Below are positions 1 through 51,109 of a DNA stretch of 64,000 bases, in pieces. The translations under genes and the position numbers were made by a program. The notes under the pieces were generated by a model that saw only the letters and a list, made by a program, of their open reading frames with translations, searched no databases and was not told the origin of the DNA. The DNA lies in assembly GCA_025201365.1 (NCBI GenBank), contig JAIXMF010000001.1:1116001-1180000 (forward strand), in the 5' to 3' direction. Source of the stretch: Syncephalis plumigaleata (taxonomy: Eukaryota > Zoopagomycota > Zoopagomycetes > Zoopagales > Piptocephalidaceae). Position 1 is the first letter of the stretch. Every line of letters starts with the position of its first letter.

Positions 1-2711
1 AATAGGCCGCTTCGACCATCGTAGCCGATATCCTTGTCTTGCAGTACATTGGCGACAAACTGTAGATCGCGACCGTAATCGCATGAGGATCGCCATGCAA
101 TTACGAAACACGGCTCATGACGTAGTGGTCGTCGATTATCACCGACAATATCGTAAATGATAATACCAATAGCACGAGTGGCCATTGGTGTAATACTAAA
201 TTCGCCTGTGGATGAATGAAAGGGATGAACACTATCGTCTAGTAGATTGGCATTACAAGCAATGGAGTAATGCCGGCCATTTACGAGTTGATAGCGTGGA
301 TGTCTATTATCAATACAAACGAATACGTGTGATGGCATTAAGGCAGCTGAACGAATTAACAATAATAACATTCATGATTAATAACATATTAATGTGTAGT
401 ATTAGTGTTAAATTCGACTTACATTCAATTGGACATTTCTAAGCATTGTCGTTCATATAATAATCATAGGCTAATGTTAATCAAAGCGATTAATTAGATA
501 GCAAGTCGCTTACCTTGCTCGATGTAGTTGGAGACTGTCGAATGCCCAGTGACAGAACGGGAATTGTTTCTAGACTCATGTGAGCATCTACAGCTAATGC
601 TGGATCCAACTGTAGCGGTGGTTTATTCACGAATTGCGATCGTGATGTAAGTTTCTGCGCGGGTTGCGGTGGTTCGCTCGCATTAATCTCGTGCGCCCAA
701 TGAATTGCTCGATTTCCCTGCTCGCTTCTAGTTAATGCGGCCAACACCAGTAACATGTAGCGATTCTGCGCCTGAGATGAATCGGCAAAGCTGACATTAT
801 TAGTTGCTAGGAATTCCGCGCTAAATGTCAAGCGTTGTCGTCCGGCTAATACGGTCCAGTTGATGACGAGAAACATTTGTGCCACCGTCTGGTTGGATGT
901 GGCATTCTCACGAGGTCCAAGTACTGATTTTGCCGCTCTAAGTGCACGAACAACGCTAAACTTCTTTTTTAGAGTGGTTTGCTGGCCATTGATGTTGATA
1001 TCACGATTACACGCCAATGGTGATGCTTGCACCGAGATGGGTCGGGACGCGACTGTGTAAGCATTATGCACCTTGTAGATGATATGCCCCGAGAATAGTC
1101 GATTCTCCATGTTTACTTTAGATACCGCGGTTAGGATTTCACCCGGTGCAATTTGACGTCGAATGATGGCCTGGTGGAATGAGTTGATATAGGCACCACT
1201 ATCACATTGCTCTAGTACAACTTGTGGATGCGTGTTTTCTAATAGTATAATAATTCCCGGTGTTGATGAATGAATCGAGTATATCAACTGGGATAGCTCA
1301 CGCTCACGAGTCACCTCATGGGCACCGGCCAATGTTTGATGACTAGTGCCATCTGTTAGATAATCGATTACACTAGTATTTCCCGTGTTACTTACTTGAA
1401 ATCATTCTTAATGGGTAACCATATGGGTTTTGACAAACTGCGACATCCAATATCCTCGGTAAACTCTAGAAATACCGAATTAAGATACGGTGCTCGTACA
1501 TACGCGCTAATCGCGAATGGTACGCCTAGTAGTTCTCCCGAGAATTTACGTCGACCGATAATCATAGTTGGATCGGTGCTTAGTCGTTCGAATTCATTGA
1601 GGGCAAATGAAAATACACGTCGTCTTATTACTTCCTCCATTCGTATATCCGAGTCGGTAGATATGACATCCATGTAGAATCGACTCTTTCCCTTGGTGTT
1701 GATATCCCATCCAACGAGGATATACATGGTGATTGGCGTGTATGAGGCGAGGAAAACTGCATCCGATGTGGAGGACGCCACCACCAACGAGTATATCATA
1801 CCGCCACGAATACGACCATTAGAGGTCGGTTGCAACAAATATTGACAGAAACTACCGCTGGTCAGCGTGGTATTTGCCGGCATACAATGAAGATTCCCCT
1901 TTTCCATATTGAATAACGGCTCTATTAGATGAATCTTCGAGTGTTCGCTATAAATCATGACAGTCGGCAGTTTCTGCTCTAGAATCGTGGCAATCTCATG
2001 ATGAGACGGTAGTTGTTCGGTTATTTTTAATGGATCTAGATTGTAAAGGAATAAAGTGAAAAACATAGAAATAAGCACATTGCCAAACACTGTATCAAAT
2101 CTATCTGTACTACCTAGCTGAATTACTTCGTCTTCCTCAAATGGCATTAGCACTAGTGGTTCCGTCACTAATTGTGTACCCGTATCGAATACACCATCGA
2201 ATAATTCGATACGCATATTGGTTTGCTTAGTATTGCCCATGGTTGCCACCACCGAGAAACATATATTATTCGGCAGCAGGATGTTGCGCTGTAGCATGCC
2301 GTGTTTCTCGCCAGCTGTCTCCGAAATAAGCCGTTTGAAATGACGTCGTAGCTCGTTTTTATCGATAGGAAATGCATCATAGTTGGCCTCTATCACCTCT
2401 AGCCAACAGAAGCACTGTCCGCTTTTTGAGATCTTCCACGCAACAAAGAGGAATAAACGAGACGATAGGGGAGCGCCCGTTTGCTGCGTCAGCCTGTAGA
2501 GCAGGCAACCAGTACATGCTGTAATCGTAAGATCAGTGCCGAATTTAGCGCTACATGTCGAGTTGGCCAGCACTGCTGCGCTAGGTGGTCGAAAGCACTG
2601 ACCAGAGGCAGCATGGTAACGCAAGTTACGGAGCTCCAAATGGGAGTGTCGATTGACCACATCCACCTGAAGCTCACGATAGCAACTGGCGCGAATTGCC
2701 TTGGAAAACAT
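1..2711 (-). CDS. Tandem beta-domain protein A (partial, 3' end outside window)
   Basis: I do not recognise this gene by name. It encodes successive copies of a domain of roughly 150-200 residues that opens with a V-x-I/V-x-N-x-H-P-like strand, then a G-x-I/V-x-Y strand, then a hydrophobic strand ending in W (for example LYRLTQQ, then LFLFVAWKI). Four copies are visible: about 2711-2150, 2140-1396, 1342-514 and 346-1, the last running off the window. The order matches domains 1-4 of the plus-strand gene starting at 4100, and the second copy ends in KPIWLP as its counterpart ends in MPIWLP. Proposed introns are 1343-1395, 439-513 and 347-422, with a 16-base exon between the last two. The start is the first ATG in frame, just before the first domain. 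No signal peptide or membrane segment is obvious. The strand pattern recalls the cytolysin/lectin beta-sandwich superfamily, but that is a weak inference. Confidence 0.75.
423..438 (-). other. Predicted 16-nt microexon of protein A
   Basis: On the minus strand a 16-base segment lies between an acceptor (TTAG) and a canonical donor (GTAAGT). Skipping it leaves domains 3 and 4 out of frame. Including it joins phase 0 upstream to phase 1 downstream and gives the residues KCPIE plus a split Ser. The two flanking introns are about 75 bases each, the usual size here. The plus-strand paralogue reads through the same region without an intron. Confidence 0.5.
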
Positions 2712-4099
2712 AAATGTAAAGCGTTTTTGACGAAACAGCAAGCGTCGTCAAGACGATGCACTGTAAGCAATCCAGCGGGAACAATGCGACAATAGTAGAG
2801 GAATAGGATGAATATACGAATAGCGAGAAAGAGAGAGAAGAAGAGGAGAGAAGAAGATAGCGAGGAGAGGAAGTGACAGTGGAAATATAATGAAAGAATG
2901 AAGGAAAAAATGGAATAATCCACAAATGGATAAGACTAAAAAACAGCAATAGTAGCAGTAATAGCACGTTATTTCATAACACGCACCATTCTACATTGTA
3001 TACTTTGGCAAGGCTGGGTAAACGTGTTCACTGACTAGTTTTAACTTATAATAATACTAATGAGTCAGTATTAGAGAAGGATGATAATTTCAACTGATGT
3101 ATGTACGACCCAGTGCGTTGCATGCAGCGTGATGGCGAAGAGTCGTACTGTAAGCGTATCTACTGTCATAACCATTTGACATTCTGAATATCCATATAAC
3201 CCATAGTGTAACCAAAGATGGTTAAAATACCACGAGATTATATATTTTAGAATGGCAGGTAATTACAGAAGCAACTAGAGAATGCTACTAACCAACAAGA
3301 ATGTATTTCCAATTCTTGATGATGTGCTTATCTACAACTTCTATGTAGATATATCTACGTGTACATGAGTGATAGTAGTAGTAGTAACAAGTAAACAAAT
3401 GTTTACGAATAGTTAGATTCCGACTAAAACTCAGTTATACGTACATTGTTAAACAAGCATAATGATTTATTAATGAATTAACGAATGAATTAACTGTTTA
3501 TGCAAATAAAGTAAGAGAAAACATAGACTTGCTTGCTAATAATACAATGGCTTGTCGTGAGTGAACAACCAGGAACAATAAAGGTAATACAAATATTAAA
3601 TCAAAGGGCAGCCACATACACTTACTCAATGTAGTTTATTGTACACTCTATTATTATGATCTATCCATGTCTATTGCCGAGTGCTCACGACACCATACAC
3701 TTTCCCTTCTTATCTCGTCATCTTGTCTCTATCATTGTAGTTGCAATTTCAGGCTGTTCTCCTCCACGTCAGGGCCAAGTACAACGGCCACTAATGCTCT
3801 TGCTGTAGTAACTGTGTATTGCTCTCGCTGGTTTGTATAAACATTCCCGCCTGCTCCTCTTCTCCTCTTACTCTCTCTCGCTCTCTCTCTTTATCAATCT
3901 TTCTTTTTCCTTTTGTTTCCTTCGTCATTGTCTCTTTATTTCCGCTCATTTCCTTTACTTGTTTATCATTCCACTTCCTACTTTAATAGCGGGGCGTCAC
4001 CGTTTTGATGCACATCATTGTTACATTCCCGCTTAAACTAAAAGTACATACGCTGGCATATACACGTATACACATCCGCTATCGACACGCTGTCCTATT
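2712..4099. promoter_or_regulatory. Shared spacer between divergent paralogues
   Basis: This 1.4 kb stretch separates the ATGs of the two head-to-head paralogues and holds no convincing gene. Each side carries a pyrimidine-rich tract on its own sense strand shortly upstream of the start: about 2820-2875 (read on minus) and about 3840-3965 (read on plus). Such tracts are common in fungal core promoters. The middle is AT-rich without clear repeats. A bidirectional promoter is inferred from layout only. Confidence 0.5.
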
Positions 4100-7000
4100 A
4101 TGGATTTTGGCGGTGTAATCAATGGAGTTGCATTGGGCCTTATGGCCATGAACGATGCTCGCTTCCGAGAAGTGAAGCTCGTCATTGTTAATCACCATCA
4201 GGAGCTCGAGCTGCGTGGCATGCGATACATACTGCTTAATGGTCGTTGCAGTCGGGCACCACACGCCACCGTGCCGGCCGATGGAGTCAGCATCGTGGCG
4301 GGCCGGTATAACGAGAACGAACGTGTCGCCACCTTCTGCACGGACCTAACCGCCTTTCGTACTCGAGGCTGTGTCGTCTACAAAATCACTCGTAAAGGCG
4401 GCCAGTCCTTACTCGACGGCAGACTATTCGTCATTATTGGATGGGACGTGCCTTTACGCGGCGCCAATCAATTCTTTCTAGAAGTAGTGAAAGCGGACTT
4501 TCCTACATTCCCCGATGACCGACAAGAGCTGCAACTGCAATATTCGCATTTGGCTAGTAGCAAATCAAGCGGAGCTAGTGATGTATTATTACGTTATCTT
4601 CGTCTACAAGATGGTATTACGGTACAAGTGGCGGCAACCATGGGTACAGCCAATGTTACCGATCTACGACTAGAGCTGTATGATGATCCTGCAAATGATA
4701 GCCCGTATCAACGACCCATTACACTTACGCCGTTGCACGTCATGAGTAATGGACATGATTTGCCATCATTAGCCATACCAAATGGCACGCCTATCGTAAC
4801 TAATACTGGCACTACGAACGCAGGAGGTCCTTTCAATAACAACAACAACAGCAATAATGGTAGACAGAGTACTAGTATAACACCGCCATGTTAGTCGCGG
4901 ATTCCACGAGTAATGTCGTGCCATCAAGTGTGCGATTACGAAGAAAAATCCAAATCGACATACGTAATCAACACTCGGATATTCTTTTGTGTGAAGCGCA
5001 GCATGACGTAACGAAAGGTGGCTGCCAGCAAGCACCCGATGCTAGAATACGACCAGGAAATGCTAGCAATGCCGAATTTCGTACAGCAGTCTATGGTGCC
5101 GGTCGCGGTTGGATTATCTACCAGCTAACGAGGGCCAAAGATCGTGTTTGGCAGCGACGTATTTTCTTGGCCATCGCCTGGGATGTTCCGCATACAGGTA
5201 TTGGTAAATTCCACATGACTGTATTCCAGGTGGATCACAAAGAGTTCCCGCACGATCATAATGAACGTGAACGTATATTCTCGCTAATGTGGAAGGAAAT
5301 GATGATACGCGGACACGGACAACGAGTATGGGCGGGCGAGCTTATGCCGGGTATTCGTTTCATCCTGTCGACGAGTGTAGCTGGCGGTAGTGCGGCGCGA
5401 TTTACAGTTAATCTCGATCATGAGCATGAAGATCGTAGCATATCCATGCCTATATGGCTACCGCCGTATAACTTTTTCACGTAAGCTACGCGTATTTCAT
5501 GATAACGAACTGATAACTAATCGTATATCCTTAATCATCCACCATCCATAGATATCGTACTCATTTCGCCGCTTCTCAAATACGAAAGCTATTGGAGGCC
5601 GCCAGTAATCCACAACGGAACACACTCGGCTACACCGGATTCTTTTCCATGTTCGTTCTCATTGAAAATGCGCACCCTTCAATTCCGCTTCGTTTGTGTT
5701 CGATCGACTCGAGGTCGAAGGGCGCTCTTCGCGAGGAGGGCAGTCTTGGCGTGTTACGTTCCGGTGTACACGATATTTTATCAGCATTTGTCGGCGAATC
5801 CGAACGATCACTTATGGGTCATGCCGTTTACCAAGTGGCGGAGAACCTCGTACTAGCATCATCATCGCATATACCGGCCGAGACATTATCGCCCAATAGC
5901 ATGGATAGTAGTGGCCAGCAACGACTTTACATCCTAGTAAGTTGGATGGCACCTACTATCCCGCAGATTCGCTACGGTGTCGAGTTCTTTACCGCTTACG
6001 ACGACGAACGCCTGACTAATAGCTCTGCCACACGATCGTTATTCTTCGTTCTGGCCGCGCTAAGTCGTGGCTATCGTGGTCATCGTATCACTCGAATGGT
6101 GTCGTATAAAGGGGAGCCACGCGCCTTGCTAGTTCAAGGCTACCTCAGCATGGATGACAACCCGGTGTTGTCGATGAACTTTGGTCCCGTTACCGACACG
6201 ACAGCGGCAGTTCAGCGTCGTTCCACATTTGGCGGTGTGACACAAGGGCGTATGCCCACTCAGGTGCAGTTCACTCTGGAGAATCTACATCCCTCCGTAA
6301 GATTACAGGCGGGACGCTTCTATTCGGTCAATAGTAATATTATAGAGGATTTCGATCGTGCCTTACTGCCATTTGGTAGGGCTGCCGGTCTAGTTGCCGC
6401 CGATCCATCGGCCACTTCATCGGCAGGCGTTGTCATGTATCAGATTGTTGATTTGGAGGGAAGACCCGTGGAAAAGTCGCCACATCTTATTATCGCCTGG
6501 CGTATGGCATTGGATAACGGCAGTGAAGAAATTCGTTTCGTTACTGATGTGCTGCAAGATGTGGACTTTGGCGAAAAGGATCCGGCAGGTAATGCCATGC
6601 TCTCCTTGCCGAATCTCTACAGCGTGCTAATGCGCGGACGCGACAAGAATGGTCCACGTGGCAGTTACGCGGTAGAAGAGGAGCGTATCGGTTTCCTAGG
6701 TCGATGGAAGAATCGATCCGTCTACTCGGTGACTTCAGATATCAATATTGATAAATCGAAGAATATCCTACATGCCACCATTGGTTTCTCAAATGAAGTT
6801 CAGGTAGGTACTAGATGTATATTGTATATTATAATTATAATAGTAATAGCAACAACTGATACTAAATGACAATATGACGACTATAGGGTGGACGACATGC
6901 ATCGGATAATTTGAGTATAGCTAGTGGAGAAACTGTTGCACCATCCATTGGTAAGTAATTATTGCTACTACCACCACCAACAATAATAATAATGACAACG

Positions 7001-9772
7001 AACATGTTTCTTCGTTATAGCGCCGGATGAAGAAGTGGATCATCCAACAAGTCCTCCTCCTGTACCTGCTATACCATCAATGGCTCCTAATCCAATTTAC
7101 TGGCATCCACCTCGATCTACTTCGCTACCGGCACATAGACTGCTACAGCCTATAATCAGATCGCCGACACTCGCTATTATTACGTTAGATTTGCATAATC
7201 TACACGCGGGCGTACGATTATTATACCCGCATGCTTATGTGGTCCAGGGTGAACCGGCAATATTGCAAATAGTAATCTTGATTTGGGAGATCAGCTACGT
7301 TGCGAGTTTACATCCTCCACAAATAGCAATGGCACCACAGAGGGTTTTATTATGTCAGCCGTGGAGGATAAGGAGATGAAGCTTACCACGAACACGTACC
7401 TGGCCATCGGTTGGCGGGTCACGCAAACGGGCGAACGCTCCTATTTCGCCAATGCTGTTCAGGTGACGTTTGACATGCACGAACGATTCGCAACTCATGC
7501 CGGTCGTGACAAGTTCTTCCGACGACTGGCCGACACCCGGCTACTCGGTGCGGGCGGTCATGTTCGACAGCGTATCAAAGTGGGCAGACTAAACCTCGCA
7601 CTTATCGGACGATTATCGCGTGAATCCGATCCAGGCCTGCCTTGTCTCTGCATCAAAGTGATCGATCCGAGTGATGCGTCATTGCTGCGACAACGAGCTG
7701 ACTCGTTACTATCGTTGAATGCAAGTATAACGAATGATCTACAAGATGGTACGCCACCCTCCATAGTGGAGCAGTATCATAATCAGTATCCACCGGAGGA
7801 AAAGGATATTTACCTTGATCCTAATCCCTCGGTACGAGGCCAGGCACCAAGCAGTCGAATGTTGCCACTATCCGATAGTAGATCCGAAGTCTCATCACAT
7901 CCTTTCAGAAATACCATATCTGCTATTCATACTACCACCACCACTGCTATCACTGCTACTGCTACTGCTACCACTACTGCTGCTGCTAGCATGAGCAATT
8001 ATCATAATAGTAATAATGCGGGGGATCTAGTGGTACCTAAACGACAAACGATTACGGGCGATGTAAAGTATAATCGTATGAAATCACGTCCACTACCTGA
8101 ACCACCTGTTCGTACGAATTCTGACACCAATCTATCAGTTCTATCCAACAAAATGACCAATATGACGGTAAATCCGCCAAAGGTCCAAGACACACCTGAA
8201 ATACTGATGAATTGCTTGCTCCCATAAGCACAATCACCGCCACAACTACTGTCAATGACAATAGTGGCATTCATAATAGTGTCATCGATCGGGCGAGTCA
8301 AGTGGTGCCCACCGAGGCTAAAGAGCAGCTTAGCGTAATATTCGCTATACGTAACATGTTGACCAATATCACCCTACAACTGGTGGCGTGTCAAGCGGTC
8401 GAGGGCATGTGTACGCGTTCGTTAAGCGAGCAAGTTGACCAACGGAATAGAAACGAGGATAGTGCCTCGTTCTCGTCGTCCACTCATTTATACGATGCGG
8501 CCACCAATGAGGCCATGGTTAAACTCGAGGGTGTTATCGCGTATAACATTTGCTATACTGATGGTACACCATTGCCACGTCCCGTTCTACTGCTTATTGG
8601 ATGGCACATGTCAAAGAAGACTCCCAACCGACTTTTACTGGAGATTGTTAGTCTCGATCCGAAGCAGCAAATACCCAATGCGACAGATCATCGTCTCTGG
8701 AACGAGATCCTCCAAGGACTTGAGGCCATGAGTCGCTTCTCCTGCTACGGTGCAGTCGACATGGAGATTGGCATTGATCACCAACGACAAATAGAAATTC
8801 AAGCCAGCTTAACCTCGGGTTCCAATGCCAAATTACGTATTAAGCTCAAGGAATTACTATTAAATGAGGTAGCTATTCTTTAGATTATTATGCGTTAAAT
8901 ACACGTTTACTAATGCAATTACTACAGCGATTGATGAATTACAATTCCCATTACCATTTAGCGAGATTATCAATGGTAGGATTCTTCTATATAAATGGGA
9001 ATGTACATTAATCTTTTGTTGTTTATTTGTTAAACTAGACACACTGCCCGATCCAGTTTATGTTATGATTGAAAATCGTCATCCATACCTATTGCTCAAA
9101 CGAGTGGAATGCGCCACCATTGTAGGTGATTGCATTACTGAACCGGCCGTTATGATCATTGCCAATGGTGGACGTGGAAGTGTCACGTTCTCGTTTACGG
9201 CGGCTTCGGCATCTGCACCGGCAGCGTGTGTTGGCATGCTACTCTACGCACTCGCCTGGCCGGATGGCCAACTACTCGCAAATCATCCGCATCTACTGAT
9301 AGCCTGGCGAGCTGAAGGTGCGAATGAAGAGCGTGAGTTCTTTGCACGCTTTATCGATAAATCCTCACCCGACAACCCTGATCAATTTGTGCTGGTCACC
9401 AATGCGAGAACAACTAACGAGCAAGAGAACACATTGAAAGAGTCGCAAAAGCTTTACTCGAACGGTAGTAAATCACTAGTACAGCAATTGTTCCAACTGG
9501 TCAATACTACGGGTATGGCGACAGCAGGCCGTATGTCATTGCATCGATCGATGGTGGGTAAGATTGAAGGTCTTCCCGTATCGCCCGATGGCAACCATGC
9601 TACCACGACGACTTCCTCCCCTTCAGTGGCCGGTCTTGAACTGCACGTTCAGGGCGACATGTCACGCGAGGGTGCGGTTAATCTAGTGGTGGTTATCGGG
9701 GAGGAGATGCTCAAACGTTCCGGCACTACTGCCATGTCACCACGACGTGATCATCGAGCTACTCTTATTTAA
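4100..9772 (+). CDS. Tandem beta-domain protein B, about seven domains
   Basis: Full-length paralogue of the minus-strand gene starting at 2711. Seven copies of the same domain can be followed: about 4160-4740, 4940-5470, 5650-6190, 6260-6800, 7165-7700, 8310-8870 and 9050-9740. Each has an N-terminal strand such as VIVNHH, IDIRNQH, VLIENAHP or VMIENRHP, then a G-x-V-x-Y strand, then a strand ending in W (IIGWDVP, AIAWDVP, LVSWMAP, IIAWRM, AIGWRV, LIGWHM, LIAWRA). Thr/Ser/Asn-rich linkers separate later copies. Clear introns are 4860-4894, 5481-5551, 6804-6886 and 6951-7020; the joins near domains 5-6 and 6-7 are not settled. No transmembrane segment or signal peptide is evident. Function is unknown; a cytolysin/lectin-like or other ligand-binding beta-sandwich is the best guess, at low confidence. 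Confidence 0.75.
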
Positions 9773-17996: not shown

Positions 17997-20900
17997 ATGG
18001 TCGTTTATAACACGGCGGCCATCTCGGCCATCTTCCTTGCCATGGCCGGACTGGCGTCAATTAGCCTAACTGTCGTGCCCAGTGTGCTTGCCTCGCCACT
18101 CCCCGAGATTATCGTCATACCTAATCGCACGCAACAGCGTTCGGGTAAACCGTTGCCAGCAAAGATACAAACCACCGCTGGCAATTTCAAAAGGCCGTTT
18201 ACATTCACCCGTGCGGTAACGGAGGACAAGCGACCCGATGGTTTGGTACCAACCATTACCAAATCCATTGGACTGGGACAACTGCTTAACCCGCTGTTAA
18301 CCGAGGGCGGTGTTGACAGAAACGTCCACGATGTATTCCAACAGCAACAGATGGATGGTATCGACACGGATACCGATGAGACATCATTGGAACAAACGGA
18401 CAATCCAGAGGATATGCGGATTCCCGACATAGTGGACAATAACTCCAGTGTCAGCGATGCCGTGTAAGTTGAATCATGTATTTGCTACTGTTCCATGTGG
18501 ACTAAAACTGAAATAAACAGCACTCCGTCTAATAATGAGCAAGAAGAGAAGCCTATTCTCGTTAAAAGTGAGTAGATCATGAATGTAATGGTTATAGCAG
18601 AGAATACTAATCTCGTCAATGTAATTAGTCCGAAAGAACAAGTCACTCATGAGTGGGACTGCACCAGAGCAAACAGATCTCGTGTAAGTCAACTGGAGTA
18701 CAAATGATTGCCGCTAACACGCTTACATATTATGATTATTATCACTCGCTAGTTCATCAGCTGGAGAGAGCGCTGGTTTATCGCCCGATTATGACGAGCC
18801 CGAGTATGAGCGCAAGCCACATTATCACGGCTATTATGCCTCCGGTCCTTATGATTCTTATAATTATAATACTAAAAAGAAGACCAAGGACGAGGATGAT
18901 GACGATGCTTACTTGTTGCCCGAGTCCGGTGTCGCTGGTGAAAATGACATTGACGCGAAGACCAATAAGCCAAAGGAGACTCCTACACCCGTAACGAAGC
19001 CTGAATCACCACCAGCTCCTTGGGAGGAGGAGGAGACATCGACCCCACCAAAGGAGAACTACGATCCGGAACCTGTCCCGGTACCAACGGCACCCATTGA
19101 TTACCCGGAAGATCCGTATCCGCCACAAGTAACGGATGAGCCAAATGAACAAGACATCGAGCCAACGTTAACACAGCCTGGGATAGTTCCTAAGGAGCCG
19201 AAATACCCACCATACGAACCAGAGCCCAACTATGCACCAGAAGAGCCAGTGGCACCACCAACCGAATTCGATCCCAACTATACACCAGAAGAGCCGATGA
19301 CTCCGCCATATCAGCCAGAGCATAATGCAGAACCTGAGGCCCGACGTCCCCACCATACCAGCCAGAGCCCCATTATGCACCGGAAGAACCAATAGCGCCA
19401 CCGCATGAATGGGAACCCAATTATGCGCCAGAAGAGCCAAAGTATCCACCGTCTGAATTCGAGTTCAATACAGCACCAGAAGAGCCGAAATACCCACCAT
19501 ACCAACCAGAGCCCCATTATGCACCAGAAGAGCCAGTGGCACCAACAACCGAATTCGATCCCAATGCAGAACCTGAGGGATCCATGATACCGCCATACCA
19601 GCAACAGCTTAACACGGCACCTGAAGAGCCAATGGCTCCACCAACAGAATTCGATCCCAATGCAGCGACAGAAGAGCCAATGGAGCCACCATTCCAGCAA
19701 CAGCTTAACGTGGCACCTCAGCAGCCAATGATTCCTCCATACCAATCACAGCATAACATGGAGCCTCAAGAGCCGCTAACGCCACCAGCTGAATTCGAGC
19801 CTACGGGAGAACCTGAGGAATCAATGGTGCCACCATTCCAACCAGAGCCCAACTATGTACCTGAGGAATCGGAAGCTCAACCCTCTCCACCACAACTGTA
19901 CGTGGCACCGGAAGAGCCTATGGCTCCATCACCCGAATGGGAGGCCAATACCGCGCCAGAAGATCCAATGGCACCACCATTCCAACCAGAGCCCAATTAT
20001 GTACCAGAAGAGCCAATGGCACCAACAACCGAGTTTGATCCTAATATGACATCAGAGGAACCGATGACACCACCATCTGAACTCGAGTCCAACGTGGAGC
20101 CCGAGGAAGCAACGACACCGCCATTCCAGCCGGAACTTAGCGTGACACCTGAAGAGCCAATGTCTCCACCATCTGAACCGCAAGAAAACCCGTATGTGAG
20201 TTCACCAGCTCCCAATCCAGGGTCATCCATTCCATCGGTTCCAGAGATTGCGGTAGATCCTCCAATAAATCTGGTGGCCCTGCCTACTCCTACGGAAGCT
20301 GTAGCTCCAAAACCCATTGGAACTAACGCACCATCAAGCCAGAAACCAGCAACTACTAGTGTACCAGCTGCATCATCTGGCACGCCACGACCAGAAGCCA
20401 CCGTTCCAGCAACCGCAACACCAAGCCCAGCTGCCATTGCCAGTCCCACACCGGCACAGTCACCGCTTACTATTGCGACGCCTACCCAGCAAAACCACAG
20501 CTTATTATTGCCACGCCTACTCCAGTACTGCCACAGCTTACTACTGCCACGCCTACTCCGGCACAGTCACCGGCCGTTACTACCCCAAGCAAAACAGATG
20601 ATAAGGTAGTTGCTACACCAAAGCCAGATGAAAAAAAGACTTTAGTTGGTTCTGACGCACTATCTAAGGTACCAGAAGGTAGCTCGCAAACTGGAATTTC
20701 TTCGGAAGCAACGACTGCACCACAAGTGGCAAACACCAACATGGACTCGTTCCCAGGTATGATTTCGCCAACGGGTCACTTCCCACATCCGGTGTTCAAC
20801 CCACATGACTGGCATCCTCAGGCGGGTAAGCCTCACCTTCCACCACACGCCGGTGTTCTACCCTTTCAAGAGAGCATTGAATTTGATCATCAGCATCATC

Positions 20901-21442
20901 ATCATCAGCATCAATTTGATGGTCATTTCTATCCACCCTACGGTCATGGCAACCCGCACTACGAATCCGAAGCATTTGGCCACTATCCACACAAGCCAGC
21001 ATACGGTCCAGGAGAGTACCCATCACCATATCATCATGGACACTTACCTTATGGCTATGGAAAACCGGAACACGGTCCCGTTCATCATCCATACAAGCCA
21101 TTCCACGGTGCTGGTGTATTCGGTAGCATTGCTCACGGATATGCTCCACCTTATTATTATGGTGGTGGTGGTAAGGCACCTGGTGGTTTTGCTAGCAAGA
21201 AACCAAGTTATTACAACACGCCTGCTTACTACCAAAAAGATGGCAACAAATACTATAAGAAGTATAATGACGAAGGTGACGACGATGACGAGGATGATGA
21301 TGACGACGACGACGAGGATGGTGAACATGATGTAGCCGATGGTAGCAACTACTACAGGGATAACAAGGGCCGTAAATACTCACGAGTAGGCAAACCACGT
21401 CACAAGACGGCGAAAAAGCATCGTCGCATGAAACACGCCTAA
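17997..21442 (+). CDS. Secreted Pro/Glu repeat protein with His/Gly/Tyr-rich and acidic tail
   Basis: No known family recognised. The N-terminus (ATG at 17997) has a hydrophobic core (AIFLAMAGLASISLTVV) ending in SVLASPLP, a good signal peptide. Small exons follow, joined by introns at about 18466-18521, 18572-18630 and 18684-18752, all in phase. From about 18950 to 20180 the protein is a tandem array of Pro/Glu units of the EEPMAPPTEFDPN kind. A Thr/Ala/Pro-rich stretch follows, then from about 20800 a His/Gly/Tyr/Pro-rich part (HHHHQHQFDGH, GYGKPEHGP), a Lys/Tyr patch, an Asp-rich run near 21280-21325 and a basic end (KKHRRMKHA). It is likely a cell-wall, adhesive or matrix protein. The reading frame shifts by one base at about 19340 and 20485, both in CCC runs within well-kept repeats. 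Confidence 0.8.
19195..20180 (+). repeat. Coding tandem repeats, Pro/Glu units of about 13-17 residues
   Basis: Repeated units of the form P-E-E-P-x-A/T-P-P-x-E-F-x-P-N alternate with P-Y-Q-P-E-P-N-Y-x type units. Conservation at protein level with synonymous change shows that the array is translated and not freshly expanded. Confidence 0.85.
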
Positions 21443-48774: not shown

Positions 48775-51109
48775 TTAATAACCAGCATAAGCATTCGAGC
48801 TATTGTCATTGTAGATGTTGGCAGTATTTGCGCTGGTGCTGTCGACTTGGGCAGGTGTAGATGTAGGTGGAGTGGTCTCATAAATGTCCACTGCACCTTG
48901 ACTGGCTACTTTTTGATACGTATTCTGGTTAGTAGCAGGTGGTGGTGGTGGTGGTGTGGACGCGATGTTGGTAGCTGGTAGAACGGCAGCAGCGGGATAT
49001 TCACCATAGGCAGGATGACCGGCAGGATAAGGTGTGGCGTATTCGACGGACACAGGCTCATCGCCATAGACATCGCTACCAGCCGAGGATGGCAGGCTAG
49101 ACTCGTAAACATCCGTGCTTGCCGAGTCTACGGCAGACGAGGTAGTGTTGCATGGTTCCGTACCAGCTGAGATCGTCTCTGTGTACTTTACAACAATGAC
49201 GGTCGTCTTAGTGACAGGCTTTGTAGTATCGCAATCGCATGGTTCCTTAGTCTCGCCCGTACTCTCAGCATCAGCTGGAATAGGAGCTGGAGGGGAAACT
49301 TGAATAGGAGCAGGAGCAGGAGCAGGCTCTGGCATTGGAACCGGATCTTGGGCAATGTAGTTAGTACCGCTGTAGATATCTTCACCTGATGGAACACTAT
49401 CATCACATGGTGTTTCTTCCACTGTGACCGGGATTTGCTCTACAATTGGAGCTGGGATTTGCTGTACAACTGGAGCTGGAGCTGGAGCCGTGTAAGTGTC
49501 AGGAGTAGAGTATGTATCGGCACCAGAAGAAATGGTATCATTGCATGGTGGTTCTTCAACTGTAACTGGAGCTGGAGCCGGAGCAGTGTAAGTATCAGCA
49601 CCAGAAGAAATGCTGTCATCACAAGATGTACACTCAGTTGGAGTAGTAACAGGAGGTGGAGCAGGAGCTGTGTATGTATCGGCACCAGAAGATACAGTAT
49701 CATTGCATGGCGGCTCTTCCACTGTAACTGGGGCTGGAGCAGGAGCAGTGTATGTATCAGCACCAGAAGAAATGCTGTCATCACAAGATGTACACTCAGT
49801 TGGAGTAGTAACAGGAGCAGTGTATGTATCGGCGCCAGAAGAAATGGTATCATTGCATGGCGGCTCTTCAACTGTAACTGGAGCTGGAGCTGGAGCAGTG
49901 TAAATATCAGGAGTAGTATAAGTATCGGCACCAGAAGAAATGCTATCATTGCAAGATGTACATTCAGTTGGAGTAGTAACAGGAGCAGTGTATGTATCGG
50001 CGCCAGAAGAAATGGTATCATTGCATGGTGTTTCTTCTACTGTAACTGGGGCAGGAGCAGGGGAAGTGTATGTATCAGCACCAGATGATACAGTATCATT
50101 ACAAGATGTACATTCAGTTGGAGTAGTAACAGGAGCCGGAGCTGGAGAAGTGTAAGTATCAGCACCCGACGATACAGTATCATTGCATGGTGTTTCTTCC
50201 GCTGTAACTGGAGCTGGAGCTGGAGCTGTATAATCATTTGCGGTGTAAGTATCAGCACCAGAAGAAATGGTATCATCACATGGTTGTTCTACAACTGTAA
50301 CTGGAGCTGGAGCGGTTGTAGCGTAGGTTTCTGCACCGGATGATACAGTATCATTGCATGGTGTTTCTACAGTTGGAGCTGGAGCCGTGTAACTAGTATC
50401 ACTATAAGTATCAGCACCTGAAGTGGTGGTATCGTTGCATGGCGTCTGATTGTTAGTGCTACCGCCATAGGTGCCCGTTTCATAGACATCCGTGCTAGCA
50501 TTGGTGTTAGTACTGGCACTACCACAGGTAATCTTGACATCCGGCAAGATTTGCCAGAAATCCTTGGCACCACCCACTACCACAGCACGAATGATCGAGT
50601 CTTCACATCGATCAGGTGTCCAGGTGAAAATGGCATTGCCTGGTTTGGGATCCGGTGACGAGTGCGTAATTACACCGTTTGCACCAACCGTTAAATCAGC
50701 GTCACAGTTGGGTTTATTGGATTTGAATCCCTCTGGTATGTTAAAATTGCCATTACGGATCTTGTCATTATTGGCACCTTGCACATACATCAATAGACCT
50801 CGATAGGATGCGGGATTCTGCAGTAGGATCTGCATCGGCTGACCAACCTGGAAGGTCGTCGACTGTGGAACAAGTCTAAATTAACATATGACAAATGCAA
50901 ATAATGTTCATGGTAAGTATACGATTAATCGCCACACACGCTCTCCTTCCCATTATTTACCTATATCCCAAGTCTTGACTCTGACCTCCCATCTTTGCGA
51001 TACGTTCTGAACGAATCACACATGCCGGAGCACCATTGGGAAGCGCAACTGCAGCACTGACCAAAATCAGTGTTTGCACTGCAACAGCATAGTTTTTCAG
51101 TAAATGCAT
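48775..51109 (-). CDS. Secreted Reeler-domain protein with Cys-repeat tail
   Basis: Two exons (51109-50961 and 50875-48775). The N-terminus MHLLKNYAVAVQTLILVSAA is a signal peptide followed by LPNGAPACV, the typical start of a Reeler domain. The domain continues with PMQILLQNPASYRGLLMYVQ, GNFNIPEGFKSNKPNCD, ITHSSPDPKPGNAIFTWTP and FWQILPDVKITCGS, to about residue 190. After that come about 13 imperfect units of C-N/D-D-S/T-x-S-S-G-A-D-T-Y-x-A-P, then Pro-rich sequence and an ordinary C-terminus ending SSNAYAGY without a GPI-like hydrophobic tail. Reeler domains occur in secreted, often defence-linked animal proteins and in some fungi. Cell-surface or wall localisation is inferred. Confidence 0.88.
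49350..50460 (-). repeat. Coding tandem repeats, Cys/Ser/Gly/Asp-Thr-Tyr units
   Basis: About 13 units of roughly 22-30 residues share the core C-N-D-T-I-S-S-G-A-D-T-Y followed by TAPAPAPVTVEEP-like linkers. Units alternate between P-C and C-T-S-C starts, so single and paired cysteines alternate. Period multiples of three leave other frames open over the array; those are shadows. Confidence 0.88.

What the first reader, a model, noticed from the sequence alone, without database searches (positions are those of the whole stretch)
1..9772. Head-to-head pair of collinear multi-domain paralogues of unknown function
Two large genes diverge from a 1.4 kb spacer and encode the same domain series in the same order: domains 1-4 of the minus gene match domains 1-4 of the plus gene, including the KPIWLP/MPIWLP end of domain 2. 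This implies an inverted duplication of a whole multi-domain gene, kept side by side, rather than independent domain expansion. Seven copies of one domain in a single protein with no recognised partner domain is unusual and is the best candidate here for an undescribed system.
Basis: partly seen in the sequence, partly recalled or inferred. Interest (0 to 1): 0.75.

Follow-up and report, generated by a model that had tools for sequence, protein, structure and literature searches.

The report
Tandem actinoporin-like proteins in mycoparasitic fungus
Two neighbouring genes of a fungus that parasitises other fungi carry five and seven copies, in fixed order, of a domain predicted to fold like sea-anemone pore-forming toxins, an arrangement we did not find described.

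The parts
2190..2711 (-). M gene domain 1 with start codon (MFSK...); predicted actinoporin-like fold
   Evidence: orthologues P0001, P0002
2036..2113 (-). probable in-frame 78-nt intron of M between d1 and d2
   Evidence: GT-AG, absent from the orthologue P0002
1410..1973 (-). M gene domain 2, ends KPIWLP; followed by phase-2 intron (1343-1395)
532..1269 (-). M gene domain 3, with internal insert; preceded by a linker (1270-1341)
1..338 (-). M gene domain 4, N-terminal part; it runs on to L002:7802; domain 5 (L002:6968-7468) and the stop (to L002:6839) lie left of the window
2712..4099 (.). 1388-bp spacer between the two start codons
4100..4687 (+). P gene start codon and domain 1
4927..5466 (+). 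P gene domain 2, ends MPIWLP; followed by phase-2 intron (5481-5551)
5556..6197 (+). P gene domain 3 with the helix before it; in a low-confidence model the helix superposes on the actinoporin N-terminal helix region
6249..6797 (+). P gene domain 4
7161..7675 (+). P gene domain 5, with a frame break at about 7257-7258
8190..8220 (+). second frame break or unresolved intron between the d5 tail and d6
8317..8853 (+). P gene domain 6
9038..9772 (+). P gene domain 7, C-terminus and stop

Best explanation
M and P are two members of a Syncephalis multi-gene family whose proteins are fixed series of divergent domains with an actinoporin-like fold (a beta-sandwich flanked by helices). The fold of d1 rests on a confident model (chance it is right about 0.93); for the other domains it is inferred from homology, with d3 modelled at lower confidence. 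The ordered series was duplicated as a unit several times (position-wise clustering, shared intron). Function is inferred. The aromatic lipid-head-group patch is missing, and the N-termini checked show no consistent amphipathic or signal-like segment. I therefore think the proteins most likely work as multivalent binders: several non-identical actinoporin-like domains in one chain bind glycans or lipid head groups on a membrane at once. They would stay in the cytoplasm or be released without a classical signal, as fungal fruit-body lectins do (recalled), and serve defence or recognition in contact with the host fungus. The stated confidence is for fold and function together.
Against: There is no binding, localisation or expression datum. 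No sequence search connects the family to actinoporins or lectins. The modelled pre-d3 helix lies where actinoporins keep their pore-forming helix, so pore formation is not excluded. P's N-terminus is fairly hydrophobic, and only a hydropathy count, no signal-peptide predictor, was used; C223, C124 and C79 N-termini were not checked. The loop of the aromatic count was located by secondary-structure order, not by a residue-level structural alignment, and 33 of 38 rows have Trp at that column. Only two domains were modelled, one at low confidence.
Confidence: 0.42

Rival explanations
1. Pore former: the chain supplies several actinoporin-like protomers at once and the helices before d1 and d3 insert into a target membrane (host hypha or predator).
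For: Closest PDB matches are actinoporins, pore structures among them; the pre-d3 helix superposes on the N-terminal helix region of bryoporin, FraC and equinatoxin II (model residue 1 on chain residues 8-11); the FraC and bryoporin pores are octameric (PMC4351601 and PMC9526159, passages) and P and C46 have seven domains.
Against: Aromatic membrane-binding patch absent, and a FraC double mutant in that patch is inactive (PMC4351601, passages). M has about 10-13 residues before its first strand (model strand starts at residue 11), whereas FraC's transmembrane helix takes residues 4-29. Only 4 of 24 pre-domain segments have a moment reached by 25 or fewer of 500 shuffles (C2 d1, P d3, C46 d2, P d5), with no pattern by position. 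Domain numbers differ between members.
Confidence: 0.18
2. Intracellular structural or trafficking scaffold: the series forms a fixed assembly on an internal membrane of the fungus itself, not used against others.
For: Domain positions are distinct and kept across paralogues, as in fixed architectures; no signal-like N-terminus in four of the five genes checked; purifying selection in C46/C266.
Against: Database hits were Syncephalis only, unlike core trafficking machinery; but those searches reach only close relatives.
Confidence: 0.2
3. M and P arose from each other by a local inverted duplication and share a promoter.
For: Head-to-head position, collinear d1-d5, M1-P1 and M3-P3 pairings, not rejected (AU p 0.13).
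Against: P2 and P4 pair with C46; best gene tree does not join P and M; M is 68-74% identical to orthologues in other species while M-P is 29%, so any such event is older than these species; the seven-domain form is shared by P and C46, not M.
Confidence: 0.3
4. P is a decaying pseudogene, so the pair is one working gene plus a relic.
For: Two frame breaks. At the first, a 41-nt GT-AG stretch seen by eye would keep the frame but would drop residues that look homologous to M d5; nothing clean was found at the second. No P orthologue among protein hits.
Against: 951 aa of P d1-d5a splice open, the other domain exons are open, and the domains keep the family's Trp. Single-base assembly errors would look the same. 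The own-species M protein is also missing from the hits, so absence there is weak.
Confidence: 0.25

Closest known systems
Actinoporins (FraC, equinatoxin II, sticholysin II, coral Fav, moss bryoporin)
   Same: Predicted fold, including beta-sandwich and second helix; for P d3 also the N-terminal helix region, at low confidence.
   Different: No Pfam or PDB sequence match; several domains per chain instead of one; aromatic lipid-binding patch missing; no consistent amphipathic N-terminus.
Fungal fruit-body lectins (XCL, SRL, ABL, BEL)
   Different: Lower structural score than actinoporins; single-domain, 141-145 residues in the PDB rows; no sequence match; sugar sites not examined.
HET-lectin-fold allorecognition proteins (Podospora BH)
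   Same: A domain distantly related to FB lectins inside a larger fungal protein (PMC10890737, passages).
   Different: One lectin-fold domain fused to a HET domain; no HET domain found here.
Nakanori, thermostable direct hemolysin, aegerolysins, Cry34
   Different: Lower scores; no sequence similarity found.

Membership tests
Actinoporins (PF06369) | Actinoporin beta-sandwich with flanking helices | tested here: met
Actinoporins (PF06369) | Sequence match to the family profile | tested here: not met
   Pfam-A listed up to E 10 for 9 window pieces and 9 family proteins or ORFs, none to PF06369 (filters drop most matches above about 0.1). The genome search with PF06369 was silent, but so were its 14 controls, so it says nothing.
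Actinoporins (PF06369) | Aromatic phosphocholine/membrane-binding patch in loop L3 and helix 2 | tested here: not met
   Nine residues after the conserved Trp column: mean 0.24 W/Y/F over 38 domains; helix-2 region 0-2 W/Y in 36 of 38, 3 and 4 in the others. Loop located by secondary-structure order.
Actinoporins (PF06369) | Free N-terminal amphipathic helix that inserts | tested here: inconclusive
   4 of 24 pre-domain segments stand out from shuffles, without pattern; the pre-d3 helix superposes on the actinoporin helix region but is internal.
Actinoporins (PF06369) | Single-domain ~20-kDa protein | tested here: not met
   Five domains in M, orthologue P0002 992 aa partial, P0003 828 aa.
Actinoporins (PF06369) | Sphingolipid-dependent oligomeric pore | not testable with these tools
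   Needs protein and liposomes.
Fungal fruit-body lectins | Sequence match to an FB-lectin profile | tested here: not met
   No FB-lectin family among Pfam matches listed up to E 10.
Fungal fruit-body lectins | FB-lectin fold | tested here: inconclusive
Fungal fruit-body lectins | Sugar binding | not testable with these tools
   Needs glycan array.

The most novel reading that the evidence does not exclude
A pre-assembled pore or ring in a single chain: the non-identical actinoporin-like domains of one protein (or of an M-P pair made from one divergent promoter) pack side by side as the protomers do in an actinoporin pore. The hetero-oligomer would then be genetically fixed in order, with only some positions (d1, d3) carrying insertion helices. 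This would be a mycoparasite weapon or host-interface channel unlike any actinoporin in the papers I saw.
Probability: 0.1. Interest if true: 0.88.

Novelty: new variant of a known kind. Interest (0 to 1): 0.6.

Why it matters
Described actinoporin-like proteins are, as far as I know and as far as the papers I saw say, single-domain toxins or lectins that assemble from identical copies. Here an early-diverging fungus strings five to seven different ones in a fixed order kept across a gene family. If the domains bind membranes or glycans, this is a new design principle for the fold and a candidate molecular interface between mycoparasite and host, a little-studied relationship. It also gives a fold to 'hypothetical proteins' of three Syncephalis species that sequence searches leave blank.

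Tried and rejected
Sequence-only identification failed: Pfam, NCBIfam (four window pieces, one insignificant EutH row at 0.055), PDB by sequence and profile (best rows E 0.38-1, chance). Viral structure library: three rows at E<=1e-3, uncharacterised giant-virus proteins (best 5.5e-6), no help. PF06369 in the own genome: nothing, but controls silent too. A consistent amphipathic helix before the first domain: not supported. Whole orthologues in the structure alignments misaligned the later domains, so window domains alone were used. pN/pS for C223 against C250 (0.54) is inflated by a frame difference and alignment ends; not relied on. That P ends after d5 and d6-d7 is a third gene was set aside, not excluded, because C46 has seven domains in the same order.

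Papers: searches (20 of 21 listed; 20 of 71; 12 of 18; 0; 3; 1; 8 of 168) showed no tandem multi-domain actinoporin-like protein in titles or starts of abstracts; in PMC5762905 (passages) 'tandem' is mass spectrometry. Two searches concerned Syncephalis only. PMC1559445 (AF-domain superfamily) is not held, so the most relevant older paper was not checked.

Rows and choices: nine of the 38 rows of the domain tree were placed by gene position although the profile matched them weakly or not at all (C223_2, C223_7, C373_3, C373_4, C2_3, C2_4, C124_3, C79_3, C79_4). Left out of it: C79 d1 and d2 pieces, a C124 d4 fragment, L044 and the near-copies. 17 of its 35 inner branches are open and most end branches are long. 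d2, d4, d6 and d7 are not single groups (4, 4, 2 and 3 changes). The 39 profile matches (recounted) include overlapping loci, the C250 near-copy and the 12 seed domains, which match by construction.
Full report
WHAT IS THERE. The window is G000:C1:1116001-1180000 of a 32.6-Mb assembly. I infer that it is Syncephalis plumigaleata: a family member on contig C373 (969,484 bp) matches protein BDF22DRAFT_743938 of that species, on a contig of the same 969,484 bp (P0003). Other genes in the window fit a fungus: a homocitrate synthase piece and a KilA-N factor (APSES type is my recall). Two large genes diverge from start codons at 2711 (-) and 4100 (+). The minus gene (M) splices over six exons to 1174 aa with no stop. 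The S. pseudoplumigaleata orthologue P0002 lacks 26 of these residues, and an in-frame GT-AG stretch of 78 nt (2036-2113) accounts for them, giving about 1148 aa. Its fifth domain and stop lie left of the window. The plus gene (P) has seven domain copies. 951 aa up to the middle of d5 are open after splicing; two later frame breaks remain unexplained.

COLLINEARITY. M and P align over d1-d5 at 29% identity. On the 38-domain alignment P1-M1 is 36%, P3-M3 27%, P4-M4 31%, P2-M2 21% and P5-M5 20%, while P-M pairs of different number lie at 10-25%; P2 is nearer M1 (25%) than M2. An intron a few codons after the PIWLP-like end of d2 has phase 2, read by eye, in M, P, C46, C373 and C223; C2 differs. 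In the domain tree d1 rows form one group (74/77), d3 and d5 need two changes each, d2 and d4 four, d6 two, d7 three. The d4 rows of M, P, C46 and C223 form a 99/97 clade. Over all positions the labels need 12 changes (least possible 6) against a shuffled mean of 25.6, 0 of 200.

THE PAIR IS PART OF A FAMILY. Own-genome searches with profile scans find related genes on C46 (seven clear domains in the same order, none of them in the seed; near-copy on C266), C373 and C2 (two clear copies each and two more that are weak or unmatched; C2 has a copy on C139), C223 (three clear; copies on C360 and C250), C124 (three clear) and C79 (two places; the one near 211 kb has in-frame stops when read in one frame). 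That is nine loci including M and P, a lower bound. In a d1-d4 gene tree of 10 rows {P, M, C46, C223} separate from {C373, C2, C79} at 95/97; within the first group P+M is not recovered (AU p 0.13) and P+C46 is not rejected (p 0.45). M orthologues are 68-74% identical in two other species and C373 orthologues 59-61%, so these duplications are older than the species. C46 and C266 differ with pN/pS 0.25, which indicates constraint. Three database searches returned 1, 2 and 3 proteins, all Syncephalis, but they reach close relatives only, so wider absence is not shown.

HOW IT MAY WORK. In actinoporins a patch of aromatics in loop L3 and helix 2 is crucial for membrane binding (PMC9526159, passages; a FraC double mutant of it is inactive, PMC4351601, passages). 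Here the nine residues after the conserved Trp column hold on average 0.24 W/Y/F over 38 domains. FraC's transmembrane helix uses residues 4-29, but M has only about 10-13 residues before its first strand, and 4 of 24 pre-domain segments stand out as amphipathic, without pattern. A hydropathy count shows no signal-like stretch in six of seven N-termini from five genes; P is borderline (1.99). The fold is thus kept while the classical lipid site and secretion are not evident. My committed reading is a multivalent glycan or lipid-head-group binder, FB-lectin-like in use, cytoplasmic or unconventionally released, in defence or host recognition. Shown: domain series, family, predicted fold of d1. 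Inferred: fold of the other domains, binding, location, biological role. Pore formation stays open, mainly because of d3.

COMPARISON AND NOVELTY. The fold is known; the architecture (five to seven different actinoporin-like domains in a fixed order, kept across a family) I did not find in seven literature searches (open-licence papers, listings partly capped). Nearest in fungi are single-domain FB lectins and HET proteins with one lectin-fold domain (PMC10890737, passages). The single-cell genomics paper that includes S. pseudoplumigaleata (PMC6784888, passages) has no occurrence of 'lectin' or 'pore-forming'. Hence: new variant of a known kind, interest 0.6.

Noticed in passing
window 7250-7260 and 8190-8220: Two frame breaks in the plus gene; assembly indels, unusual introns or early decay.
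   Followed up: partly
G000 contigs C266, C360, C250, C139 against C46, C223, C2: Near-identical second copies of family loci, which looks like alternative haplotypes or assembly redundancy in this genome.
   Followed up: partly
L044 (C79 near 211 kb): A further family member with in-frame stops in a single-frame reading; either introns or a decaying copy.
   Followed up: no
window 48778-50880 (-): A 701-aa open frame without any Pfam match at 1e-3.
   Followed up: no
window 18736-21439 (+): Long proline-rich repetitive reading frames; another proline-rich frame sits upstream of the C46 paralogue (L014:3-689).
   Followed up: no
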